Assembly (NCBI RefSeq): GCF_009668025.1
Contig: NZ_WJXZ01000001.1
Location: 239,814 to 303,813 of the forward strand
Length of the DNA stretch: 64,000 nucleotides
Source: Larkinella terrae
GTDB taxonomy: Bacteria; Bacteroidota; Bacteroidia; Cytophagales; Spirosomataceae
Direction of reading: 5' to 3'
The notes under the pieces are model-generated. The model worked only from the letters and a program-made list of their open reading frames with translations, was not told the origin of the DNA and did not search any database. Made by a program: the position numbers and the translations under genes. Shown one piece after another: positions 2,429-53,012 of this stretch; position 1 is the stretch's first letter, and every line of letters starts with the position of its first letter.

Positions 2429-2501
2429 GCCTCCTTAGCTCAGTTGGTAGAGCGACGCATTCGTAATGCGTAGGTCGCAGGTTCGAGTCCCGTAGGAGGC
2501 T
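2429..2501 (+). tRNA. tRNA-Thr (anticodon CGT)
   Basis: The cloverleaf is complete. The acceptor arms GCCTCCT (2429-2435) and AGGAGGC (2494-2500) pair over 7 bp, the D arm is GCTC/GAGC, and the anticodon stem ACGCA/TGCGT encloses the loop TTCGTAA with anticodon CGT. The T arm carries GTTCGAGTC. CCA is not encoded. Its 3' end forms the left attachment site of the integrated element, and because the 3' half is unchanged the gene should still work. Confidence 0.95.
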
Positions 2502-2508
2502 CATTTTT
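2488..2508 (+). repeat. attL: direct repeat at tRNA-Thr 3' end
   Basis: These 21 bases (core CCCGTAGGAGGCTCATTT) cover the T-arm and acceptor 3' end of the tRNA and the following T run. They recur without mismatch at 52992-53012. The upstream bases are also nearly shared (GTTCGAG against GTTCAAC). A tyrosine integrase gene starts 175 bases further on, which is the usual arrangement for tRNA-integrating phages and ICEs. I read it as the left attachment site. Confidence 0.88.
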
Positions 2509-2513
2509 TGAAT

Positions 2514-2569
2514 AAGGGTTAATCAGTTTTCGAGCGTAAAACCTCAAAATCAACTGGTTAACCCTTTTT
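2514..2569 (+). terminator. Rho-independent terminator after tRNA-Thr
   Basis: AAGGGTTAATCAGTT (2514-2528) pairs with AACTGGTTAACCCTT (2552-2566) over 15 positions with one G-T pair, and TTT follows. It lies 12 bases past the tRNA and belongs to the element side of attL. The loop shares the pattern GAGC-AAA-CTCAAAAT with the matching hairpin beyond attR. Confidence 0.85.
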
Positions 2570-2613
2570 GCTTTATTATACTTTACTGTAAATAATTAGG
2601 TTTAGTAAAGAAG

Positions 2614-2635
2614 TTCCGTCCCCCATTCCGTCCCC
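2614..2635 (+). repeat. Tandem TTCCGTCCCC repeats, left arm-type sites
   Basis: TTCCGTCCCC occurs at 2614-2623 and again at 2626-2635, a 12-nt period. Near copies with the same spacing lie at 52910-52931, inside attR, and at 53114-53135, beside the decayed integrase. Position near both ends of the element and equal spacing suggest binding sites for the integrase N-terminal arm-binding domain or an accessory factor. The function is inferred. Confidence 0.55.
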
Positions 2636-2682
2636 TTCTCATTTTTTATTCTTAACTTGGAGTTGTTCAAACCAGGTAATCA

Positions 2683-50946: not shown

Positions 50947-51364
50947 TCATTTTTCAATCACCTCTGCCTTCATCTGATTCTCATCCAGCGGGTGCATCAT
51001 CCCGATAATTTCGTCTTTAGTCAGTTTGGGGTCGAGCCAGCGTCGTTCCTCCTCCCGACTAAACATCATGGGCATTCGCTTTTTGGTGTTGTGAATAAAT
51101 TCCATGAGGGGATTGGCGGCCGTTGTGACAATTGAAAAGGCTTTTCGTCGGCCAGCCGGATGTAATAGGGAATCTTCTTGCCATCCGCAGGCGCCATTCA
51201 TAAAAACCGTCAACCAGCAGCAGGCAGCGCATTTTGGTAATACTGTCCCGGAACGACGGCAGTTCAAAAATGGTGTATTCACGAGCATTCAATGTCGCTT
51301 TCGCAATTTCTGCCGCCTTTAGATGACACTCTCCTAGATCATTCGGCCGGTTGTTTGCTTCCAT
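50947..51364 (-). pseudogene. SRAP pseudogene
   Basis: Two frames together hold the back two thirds of a SRAP protein: IAKATLNAREYTIFELPSF, LLLVDGFYEWRL (frame one), then AFSIVTTAANPLMEFIHNTKKRMP and LDPKLTKDEIIGMMHPLDENQ (frame two). They match the intact gene at 44534 closely. The N-terminal third with catalytic Cys2 is absent and a frameshift and short deletion lie near the middle. Catalysis is not possible; this is a second, decayed copy. Confidence 0.85.
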
Positions 51365-51414
51365 TGGCGGTCATCTTCAGCCACCTTCAGGTAGTTATCC
51401 TTTTTGCGGACTGA

Positions 51415-52203
51415 TCATTCGCCAGTCTTGTCATTTAGATTGTCACCCTGATCCAAAGCAGGTGCTGGAATTCTTTCCAGATGCTTGCGCCAGAATGTTC
51501 CAATTAATTGAGCCTCTTCCCGCGTAACAACTCTATTTCCCTTGCCCTCGACGTAGATATTGATATTTTCAATATGTATCTCTTGCTTTTCGTCGGGCTT
51601 GGTCAGATCATGTATTGCCATTAAAATGGTTACTACGTTAGCTAGAATAGTCGAAACTTCAATGATGCCGTTGAGCACTTTTCTTACTGGTATGCTTTTC
51701 TGGATATTTACGTCAGATTTTGTATAGTTTGGATAGCCCGTCTCCTTGTTTTCAGCGATAGCACTTAAAAAACCCTCAGCTCTGCCCGCAAGAGAGCATA
51801 CCATCTCCATCAACATCTTGATATTATTGTAAATCTCGTCGGTCTTGACTGCACAAGCGTGTTTAGCCGATTCGATTTTATCACGAACATAATTTAGAAG
51901 TTCCTGAGCAGGTGGAGGGCCCTGGTAGTTAAGGTGGCGAAGAATCGCACTGTTGACCGGTACAATAATATCTTCGAAGTCTTTTTTGGATATGGTTTGT
52001 TGCTGGGATTGCTTTTCATTATTCCGTACCCATTCCCAGAAGGTATCCTCAACAAGCAAATGGTTGAGGCTTTTACAGGCCAGCGCGCTTGCTCTAACCA
52101 ATAAGAAATCAACATGCCTATCGTCAAATCCATTTTTTTCGCGATCTCTCAGTAGGCTTGAAAGTTCATTCAAATCTTTTACGTACCCTTTGTATTTTAG
52201 CAT
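51415..52203 (-). CDS. Hypothetical protein with one membrane-like segment
   Basis: The 262-residue product is helical (about 1-150, with WEWVRNNEKQSQQQTISKKDF) and has one hydrophobic stretch near 190-205 (GIIEVSTILANVVTILMAIHDL). The remainder is polar, with HIENINIYVEGKGNRVVTREEAQLI, a strand-rich segment seen next to the hydrophobic helix in some pore or effector proteins. No family is recognised. It is the last intact gene before attR. The decayed SRAP gene lies just downstream, separated by 50 bases. Confidence 0.6.
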   Translation of the reverse strand: MLKYKGYVKDLNELSSLLRDREKNGFDDRHVDFLLVRASALACKSLNHLLVEDTFWEWVRNNEKQSQQQTISKKDFEDIIVPVNSAILRHLNYQGPPPAQELLNYVRDKIESAKHACAVKTDEIYNNIKMLMEMVCSLAGRAEGFLSAIAENKETGYPNYTKSDVNIQKSIPVRKVLNGIIEVSTILANVVTILMAIHDLTKPDEKQEIHIENINIYVEGKGNRVVTREEAQLIGTFWRKHLERIPAPALDQGDNLNDKTGE

Positions 52204-52909
52204 AGTAGGGAGGATTTAAGACCAAACTTTAGAGTAATTGATATTAGGCATTAGTAATTTGCCCAATATCCTGAAAGAGAGGGAATTGTACAAGTCTCTC
52301 GATAAACGGTATCAACATTTCAATCAAAATAATTTGCTTTGTTCGCTCTTTAACTGTGTAGCTTTTTTTCGAGCCGGACAATCGTCTCTCTCAGGCATCC
52401 AATCTGGTACTAGGCAGCTATGGGCTTATATTGCCTAACTATATCCGCGGACCTGTAGGACTTCTTATCGGGCTGGCAGAACAACTTGGCAATAAATAAG
52501 TAGAGTTATTTTTGGCAATAATCTCGTAGGTTCGGTCGATTTGGAAAGAAAAATGTTGAATGTAAGAAATGCAGCACTGCAAAACATTTAATTTTTTCTC
52601 GTTTGTGCAGCCGTATCGCCTGGATAGCCTGGAATAGTTTGCCCTTTGCCGTTTTAAAGCCTGAGCGGTTCAACTCAACCGCGATGATTGCAAAGGCCTT
52701 GCTATGGCCGGAGCATCTCGATAATACATCCAGTCGTTAATGGTAAATGGCTAGTGTTTTTCATATCGCGGCACAGCAAAATTACTTTTGCCGGTTTTGC
52801 CGGTAAGCCACCTAACGTTTGTTGAAAAAAATGGGTCAGAGGGTGATTTCTCTGACCATGACCAAACCAAGTAACCTGTAATAGACACCTTCTGAACAAA
52901 TATTTTCGC
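52204..52909. other. Gene-free stretch before attR
   Basis: No intact gene is seen. On the minus strand, from about 52705 down to 52580, the frame reads HSKAFAIIAVELNRSGFKTAKGK, which resembles the Leu-Asn-x-x-Gly-x-x-Thr-x-x-Gly-Lys motif of serine recombinase or resolvase C-terminal parts, but with no start or neighbours it is only a fragment. The rest has no structure that I can support. Confidence 0.4.
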
Positions 52910-52931
52910 ATTCGTCCCCTAATCCGTCCCC
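52910..52931 (+). repeat. Tandem ATTCGTCCCC repeats, right arm-type sites
   Basis: ATTCGTCCCC at 52910-52919 and ATCCGTCCCC at 52922-52931 repeat with a 12-nt period, as at the left end. They lie 61 bases inside attR. They are candidate integrase arm sites, matched to 2614-2635. Confidence 0.55.
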
Positions 52932-52991
52932 TCCTATTAAAATTAAACATTAATATATTGAATATCAAAGCATTAACCCTGATAGTTCAAC

Positions 52992-53012
52992 TCCCGTAGG
53001 AGGCTCATTTTT
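52992..53012 (+). repeat. attR: direct repeat of tRNA-Thr 3' end
   Basis: The same 21 bases as attL, without mismatch. It is a cut-off copy of the tRNA end with no upstream tRNA half. The distance from attL (50,504 bases) is the element length. Confidence 0.88.

What the first reader, a model, noticed from the sequence alone, without database searches (positions are those of the whole stretch)
2429..53012. 50.5-kb element integrated at the 3' end of tRNA-Thr(CGT)
A perfect 21-bp direct repeat (2488-2508 and 52992-53012) brackets 50,504 bases, starts inside a tRNA gene and has a complete tyrosine integrase just inside the left copy. The gene content between the repeats is a mix of phage replication, packaging and tail genes, three HTH/excisionase-like proteins and unrelated cargo, and the DNA outside is host-like. 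This defines element borders precisely.
Basis: partly seen in the sequence, partly recalled or inferred. Interest (0 to 1): 0.72.

Follow-up and report, generated by a model that had tools for sequence, protein, structure and literature searches.

The report
Composite island inserted at tRNA-Thr
A bacterium (probably genus Larkinella) carries a 50.5-kb mobile island slotted into the end of a tRNA-Thr gene, next to the wreck of an older one; most relatives looked at carry other islands, or remnants of them, at the same address, and this one stands out mainly for a phage packaging set without any shell genes found.

Summary
In detail: the 21-bp repeat is exact (period 50,504 bp), starts inside tRNA-Thr(CGT), and an intact tyrosine integrase (Int1) lies just inside it. 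Two findings go further. (1) An exact pair CGTCCCC-N5-CGTCCCC occurs only at 2617 and 52913, just inside each border; congeneric islands show it at the same spacing (135-136 bp left, 71-72 bp right). It looks like the integrase arm site and ties both ends to one element. (2) The site is a hotspot: of 8 congeners, 4 have an Int1 homologue after this tRNA, 2 have Int1 remnants, 1 a distant integrase, 1 none found. Int1 and the HTH_17 protein are shared, cargo is swapped (restriction systems, or phage genes). Right of the element lies a decayed Int1 copy (53190-53603), so this is a tandem stack. Inside, replication, terminase and tape-measure genes are present but no portal or capsid gene was found. 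The genus is probably Larkinella, not Spirosoma. Best reading: a composite integrative genomic island with a headless phage module, a PD-Lambda-1/SNIPE homologue and about 27 kb of host-type cargo. Whether the headless module is remnant or satellite is open.

The parts
2429..2502 (+). tRNA-Thr(CGT), integration target; 3' end supplied by the element
   Evidence: ARAGORN
2488..2508 (+). attL: exact 21-bp repeat; core shared with congeners TCCCGTAGGAGGCTC(A)
2514..2570 (+). terminator-like hairpin after the rebuilt tRNA (-21 kcal/mol, z -4.4); a 25-nt part of it occurs only twice in the 7.85-Mb genome with up to 3 mismatches
2617..2635 (+). left paired arm-type site CGTCCCC-N5-CGTCCCC, 136 bp after the start of the att region (2481)
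2683..3981 (+). Int1, tyrosine integrase with TGLR / HTARR / GH..Y motifs; 75-84% identical to integrases behind the same tRNA in 4 congeners
4027..4851 (+). variable ORF between int and the HTH_17 gene; the one in G007 matches RteC (7.2e-7), this copy matched no Pfam or PHROGs family
4943..5263 (+). HTH_17 protein, likely excisionase; 79-89% identical in 4 congeneric tRNA-Thr islands
5817..6527 (+). phage-type replisome organiser (phrog_13246, 2.9e-14)
6524..7879 (+). DnaB-type helicase (79% identical to that of a tRNA-Gly element in G008)
8313..8993 (+). terminase small subunit
8893..10350 (+). terminase large subunit (true start may lie downstream, the ORF overlaps terS)
10380..11057 (+). 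orf225; relatives follow the tape-measure gene in G007:C16 and lie near it in the portal-bearing prophage of G189
11171..15253 (-). tape-measure protein (Pfam TMP_3 6.9e-23; phrog_18891 tail tape measure 8.4e-47; unnamed phrog_33615 1.4e-188), opposite in strand to the terminase
15887..16723 (+). host-like potassium-channel gene inside the phage block
19166..20665 (+). AntA/AntB antirepressor
20832..22223 (+). second tyrosine recombinase (phrog_1, 1.2e-19; Pfam below its cut-off); no Arg at the first catalytic position, as in the other phage-type integrases aligned
22236..22652 (+). LytTR DNA-binding protein, near phage genes in relatives
23109..24539 (+). PD-Lambda-1 (SNIPE) homologue: DUF4041 plus GIY-YIG nuclease, hydrophobic N-terminus (by eye)
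24815..52203 (.). mostly host-type cargo: DinB, NmrA, two large secreted proteins, response regulators, TPR histidine kinase, TMEM175, SRAP (intact and broken copy), trypsin-like protease
52913..52931 (+). right paired arm-type site, 72 bp before the att region (52985)
52992..53012 (+). attR: exact 21-bp repeat
53014..53069 (+). displaced terminator-like hairpin (-30 kcal/mol, z -7.8)
53190..53603 (+). decayed Int1-like N-terminus (38% identity, 3 in-frame stops): remnant of an older island at the same site

Best explanation
A 50,504-bp composite integrative genomic island, integrated by its own tyrosine integrase (Int1) at the 3' end of tRNA-Thr(CGT). Int1 would bind the core in the tRNA end and the paired CGTCCCC sites on both flanks (inferred) and recombine attP with attB, so that the element's copy of the tRNA end and terminator completes the gene while the old end sits at attR (seen in the anatomy). 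The HTH_17 protein near Int1 would direct excision (inferred). The same int/HTH_17 cassette serves islands with other replication genes and cargo at this tRNA in congeners. In this copy the backbone holds a phage replication-terminase-tape-measure module in which no head gene was found, a PD-Lambda-1/SNIPE homologue and about 27 kb of mostly host-type cargo. It lies in front of the remnant of an older island, a tandem stack. No conjugation gene was recognised; spread between cells would need a helper phage, transduction or transformation (inferred).
For: Exact 21-bp repeat starting inside the tRNA, integrase adjacent. Paired arm sites exact at 2617 and 52913 only; none in 100 shuffles. Left spacing 135-136 bp in the 6 sites with the motif (window, G001, G003 with one mismatch, G006, G007, G008), right spacing 71-72 bp in the 4 elements with both ends in view (window, G003, G007, G008). 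Int1 homologues 75-84% after the same tRNA in 4 of 8 congeners, remnants in 2 more, G004 and G006. HTH_17 homologues 79-89% in the same 4. Cargo differs: G003 type III restriction (PF04851, PF19778), G007 MmeI-type restriction gene (PF20473, split into two ORFs), with relatives in G006 and G008. DNA right of the G008 attR is partly syntenic with G002, which lacks that island. GC 0.465 in the element against 0.505-0.518 in three neighbouring stretches.
Against: The exact pre-insertion allele (tRNA joined to the older remnant) was not seen in any of 8 congeners, of which 4.7-30 kb downstream of the tRNA were read. That the whole 50 kb moved as one piece is not shown: cargo could have been added later, and no sister copy of the complete island was found. 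Of the older island's marks only the integrase remnant is firm: the supposed arm pair at 53117 has 3 mismatches, and the same loose scan gave 12 other matches with 2-3 mismatches in 83 kb, although its place (132 bp) fits. The excisionase and RteC roles rest on position and weak family matches. Excision was not observed.
Confidence: 0.88

Rival explanations
1. The phage part is a decayed temperate prophage: a phage that integrated here or recombined into the island lost its head, tail and lysis genes, and host genes accumulated. (This and the next rival concern the phage module and do not exclude the island reading.)
For: Terminase, tape-measure, antirepressor and LytTR genes resemble, in kind and largely in order, the portal-bearing prophages of the family; the tape-measure gene is inverted; the nearest terminase relative lies in a portal-bearing prophage (G007:C12, 61-63% identity).
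Against: Int1 and the HTH_17 protein belong to restriction islands at the same tRNA, while the integrases of phage-type loci aligned here are of another type. The phage-module genes of the parts list are open frames without internal stops.
Confidence: 0.3
2. A phage satellite: an island that keeps its own integration, replication and terminase genes, and a tape-measure protein, and uses heads of a helper phage.
For: This terminase without a phrog_7376 portal recurs in four loci of the genus: window, own C18 (tRNA-Lys, 46-bp repeat, 45.5 kb), G007:C16, G008:C266 (tRNA-Gly, 52-bp repeat, 35.3 kb). In three of the four a tape-measure or tape-measure-like gene lies about 0.8-1.1 kb from the terminase (the C18 match is weak, 2e-7), against about 9-13 kb in portal-bearing prophages. 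The own genome has two such terminases and no phrog_7376 portal at 1e-5.
Against: The headless terminases do not form a supported clade. The elements are large (35-50 kb). G008:C266 gave no tape-measure match. In the window the tape-measure gene is inverted. No helper or packaging data.
Confidence: 0.2
3. An integrative conjugative or mobilisable element.
For: Site-specific integration at a tRNA, integrase plus HTH_17 protein, an RteC-like neighbour in G007; RteC regulates Bacteroides conjugative transposons (recalled).
Against: No relaxase, coupling-protein or type IV secretion family among the Pfam matches of 50 window proteins, 47 of them inside the element.
Confidence: 0.04
4. Two unrelated islands separated by ancestral chromosome, with the 21-bp repeat a relic of the outer pair only.
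For: Cargo 24.8-52 kb belongs largely to multicopy host-type families.
Against: No internal copy of the core and no internal exact arm pair; arm spacing at both ends matches one Int1 element.
Confidence: 0.06

Closest known systems
Composite tRNA-borne genomic islands such as CGI48 at tRNA-Trp in Shewanella putrefaciens (PMC8978831; abstract and outline seen)
   Same: Integrase island of about 48-50 kb at a tRNA gene that is an island hotspot in its genus; carries an inner mobile module
   Different: Here the inner module is phage terminase/tape-measure without visible att sites of its own, in Bacteroidota, and stacked on an older remnant; excision is untested
Restriction-system islands at the same tRNA-Thr in congeners (this work)
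   Same: Int1, HTH_17 protein, att core and arm-site spacing
   Different: 10.7-18.2 kb where both ends are seen, with restriction systems instead of phage packaging genes and large cargo
Phage satellites (PICI, cf-PICI, PICMI; search listings with abstract starts only)
   Same: Integrase, own replication genes, defence-type cargo, no complete virion gene set
   Different: Larger, carries terL plus a tape-measure gene but no capsid gene found; helper and packaging unproven
SNIPE / PD-Lambda-1 defence protein (PMC13190303; abstract and passages seen)
   Same: Hydrophobic N-terminus (by eye), DUF4041, GIY-YIG nuclease; near full-length profile match
   Different: Host and target phages unknown; function untested here

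Membership tests
tRNA-integrated genomic island (tyrosine-integrase type) | Direct repeat of the tRNA 3' end at both borders | tested here: met
tRNA-integrated genomic island (tyrosine-integrase type) | Intact integrase next to the tRNA-side border, catalytic motifs kept | tested here: met
tRNA-integrated genomic island (tyrosine-integrase type) | Sporadic, site-linked presence with different content in relatives | tested here: met
   intact Int1 homologue after the tRNA in 4 of 8 congeners, remnants in 2, distant integrase in 1, no match in 1
tRNA-integrated genomic island (tyrosine-integrase type) | Exact empty allele of this insertion | tested here: inconclusive
   G002 has no integrase match there, but its downstream DNA differs; the allele with the older remnant was not seen
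tRNA-integrated genomic island (tyrosine-integrase type) | Excision as a circle | not testable with these tools
   needs PCR or reads
Complete temperate prophage | Portal and capsid genes | tested here: not met
   no head family among the matches; no phrog_7376 portal in the own genome at 1e-5. One search scanned 89 further ORFs of four headless elements, 20 of them from the window: 50 families matched, only the first 25 are displayed, none of these a portal or capsid; the 25 weaker ones were not seen
Complete temperate prophage | Terminase, integrase and tape-measure genes | tested here: met
Integrative conjugative/mobilisable element | Relaxase and type IV secretion genes | tested here: not met
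   Pfam scans of 47 element proteins; small ORFs and some overlapping ORFs were not scanned
Phage satellite | Integrase, own replication genes, incomplete virion gene set | tested here: met
Phage satellite | Packaging in particles of a helper phage, induction by it | not testable with these tools
   experiment needed
Phage satellite | Shared descent of the headless modules | tested here: inconclusive
   14 terminases, 6 of 11 inner branches unresolved, headless ones not one supported clade
PD-Lambda-1 / SNIPE | DUF4041 plus GIY-YIG domain over nearly the whole profile | tested here: met
   1.3e-168, residues 9-459 of 476
PD-Lambda-1 / SNIPE | Anti-phage activity | not testable with these tools
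   experiment needed

The most novel reading that the evidence does not exclude
This genus hosts a class of chromosomally integrated phage satellites that keep replication genes, both terminase subunits and, in three of four loci seen, a tape-measure protein, but no head genes: the element would package its DNA with its own terminase into heads of a helper and set or spoil tail length with its own tape measure, while in this copy a SNIPE-type nuclease (reported in E. coli to act on siphophages through their tape-measure proteins) guards the cell against other siphophages.
Probability: 0.15. Interest if true: 0.75.

Novelty: new member of a known kind. Interest (0 to 1): 0.4.

Why it matters
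The find gives attachment core, likely arm sites, integrase and likely excisionase of an island family at one tRNA, with natural replicates of different cargo. That makes Int1 a testable integration tool for Cytophagales, and the site a place to look for defence genes. The repeated presence of terminase and tape-measure genes without head genes turns an open question, remnant or satellite, into a direct experiment.

Tried and rejected
Spirosoma as host: set aside. G007, given as same genus as the window's genome, has a contig of the same length (134,891) as a named Larkinella soli record, with the same ORF lengths. L127 and L222/L223 are therefore taken as one locus and counted once. The likely Spirosoma genome (G202, contig length equal to a Spirosoma sp. 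48-14 record) is in another genus of the family.

treS (L008) as a conserved right-hand neighbour: present in all 8 congeners but near tRNA-Thr in none. A histidine-kinase gene of the right flank (57867-60362) was found at 1e-100 only in the own genome.

Internal att copies: none of the core, no exact arm pair. Nested prophage borders around the second integrase: no second tRNA and no repeat that marks a border.

Headless elements as one clade: not supported, tree largely unresolved. Viral contigs: tape-measure protein gave one weak relative (30%); Int1 gave 61 loci, best segment identity 46% over residues 209-432. Plasmid records with Int1: 60, all under 60% identity. Phage records with tape measure (1023) and terminase (2710): all under 60% identity.

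No solved structure matches Int1 at 0.001; the G007 RteC-like ORF gave only chance-like matches. Structure prediction was not obtained.

Papers: the listings show no paper on such Larkinella elements or on headless terminase/tape-measure satellites in Bacteroidota (listings and abstract starts only; the library is partial). PMC11364771 (tail assembly inhibition) was seen in passages and is not used as evidence. Searches were listings.
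Full report
OBSERVATION. The period is 50,504 bp. By base composition, 3e-8 further exact hits of the 21-mer are expected in 64 kb. The window has one other perfect repeat of at least 21 bp, inside a single ABC-F gene, so the argument rests on position as well as length.

WHOSE GENOME. The window is G000:C1:239814-303813 in a 7.85-Mb, 22-contig assembly. A same-genus genome, G007, has a contig of the same length as a Larkinella soli record, so the genus is inferred to be Larkinella (Spirosomataceae).

THE SITE IN CONGENERS. tRNA-Thr(CGT) next to the same ABC-F gene is present in all 8 congeners searched. After it: an intact Int1 homologue, 75-84% identical, in G001, G003, G007 and G008; Int1 remnants in G006 (39 aligned residues, 59%) and G004 (83 aligned residues, 51%, about 2.3 kb downstream); a distant integrase (22% identity, about 0.9 kb downstream) in G005; no integrase match in about 30 kb of G002. 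G001 and G006 contigs end 6.8 and 4.7 kb after the tRNA. Islands with both ends in view measure 10.7 kb (G003), 18.2 kb (G007) and 12.7 kb (G008). DNA right of the G008 attR is syntenic with parts of the G002 region, which has no such island, although G002 has about 4 kb of other DNA next to its tRNA and 7 kb more further on.

BORDERS. The exact pair CGTCCCC-N5-CGTCCCC occurs twice in the window, at 2617 and 52913; 100 shuffles gave none. From the start of the att region to the left pair the distance is 135-136 bp in the six sites that show it (window, G001, G003, G006, G007, G008; the G003 pair has one mismatch). On the right it is 71-72 bp in the four elements with both ends (window, G003, G007, G008). 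These are probably integrase arm sites (inference). Both borders of the window element are followed by a terminator-like hairpin, so the insertion completes tRNA and terminator. The right repeat in G007 and G008 lacks the T-run, the one in G003 has it, so the shared core is TCCCGTAGGAGGCTC with or without a final A.

TANDEM STACK. Just right of attR lies a decayed Int1-like N-terminus with three stops (53190-53603). A possible arm pair at 53117 has three mismatches; the same loose scan of 83 kb gave 12 other matches with two or three mismatches, so only its position (132 bp from the att region) speaks for it. The element-type terminator sequence occurs at only two places in the genome: attL and C1:304137, 324 bp beyond the window. 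That second place carries no att core and folds no better than 14 of 200 shuffles. I read this as at least two, perhaps three, successive insertions at one tRNA; the right end of the older island is unresolved.

CONTENT. Shared backbone: Int1 and the HTH_17 protein. Between them each island has a different ORF; only the one of G007 matches RteC (7.2e-7), and the other four align at 14-19% identity to the window's copy, so a shared role is a guess from position. Cargo in congeners: a type III restriction system (G003); an MmeI-type restriction gene in G007, split into two ORFs, with relatives in G008 and G006 (only the G007 one was scanned); replication genes with a DnaB-type helicase in G001. 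The window copy instead has a replisome organiser, DnaB, both terminase subunits, orf225, an inverted tape-measure gene, an antirepressor, a second recombinase and LytTR, then a PD-Lambda-1 homologue and mostly host-type cargo to 52.2 kb with relatives in many places of this and other genomes of the genus.

HEADLESS MODULE. In portal-bearing prophages of the family this terminase is followed by portal, head and tail genes, with the tape-measure gene about 9-13 kb downstream (G220, G189, G202). In eight genomes searched for the portal family phrog_7376, the portal lies next to this terminase in G007:C12, G220, G189 and G202; no match lies next to it in the window, own C18, G007:C16, G008:C266 and G211:C155, that is in 5 of 9 terminase places. 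The G211:C155 terminase has a stop inside, and its surroundings were not read. A portal of another family would have escaped this test. Own C18 and G008:C266 are bounded by tRNA repeats (46 bp at tRNA-Lys, 45.5 kb; 52 bp at tRNA-Gly, 35.3 kb); no tRNA was found at G007:C16. The headless terminases do not group together in the tree, which is largely unresolved, and the integrases differ between elements, so repeated loss and repeated satellite formation both remain possible. A batch scan of 89 further ORFs from the four headless elements showed no portal or capsid among the 25 best of 50 matched families; the weaker 25 are not displayed.

DEFENCE GENE. The 23109-24539 product matches PD-Lambda-1 over residues 9-459 of 476 (1.3e-168) with DUF4041 and GIY-YIG domains. 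SNIPE, the E. [quoted passage not shown] Its neighbourhood with a tape-measure gene here may be chance; the G003 relative of this gene lies in a genome with no tape-measure match at 1e-20.

VERDICT. A real, well-bounded composite genomic island; a new member of a known kind. The main uncertainty is how it moves between cells and whether its phage module does anything.

Noticed in passing
G000:C18:90345-135846 (L207-L209): A second tRNA-integrated element (tRNA-Lys CTT, 46-bp exact repeat, 45.5 kb) in the same genome with integrase, primase/helicase-like ORFs (by eye), terminase, a tape-measure-like gene and AntA but no phrog_7376 portal.
   Followed up: partly
L210:6328 to L212:1919 (G008:C266): A 35.3-kb element at a tRNA-Gly with 52-bp repeat and an integrase next to one border; its DnaB is 79% identical to the window's.
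   Followed up: partly
window 23109-24539: PD-Lambda-1/SNIPE homologue; SNIPE is reported to associate with tape-measure proteins and here lies 8 kb from a tape-measure gene.
   Followed up: partly
window 50947-51364: Two overlapping ORFs each match a different part of the SRAP family: apparently a frameshifted SRAP copy beside an intact one at 44534-45160.
   Followed up: no
window 45261-48887; L216:838-4458: A large secreted-protein gene has an 82% relative about 20 kb downstream of the tRNA-Thr of G004, inverted, perhaps shared hotspot cargo.
   Followed up: partly
window 15887-16723: A potassium-channel gene with 71-75% nucleotide matches in five congeners sits inside the phage block, probably captured from a host.
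   Followed up: no
G000:C18 about 104-107 kb and window 35-39 kb: Some small cargo genes (orf177 and others) match at 75-82% nucleotide identity between the two tRNA elements of this genome.
   Followed up: no
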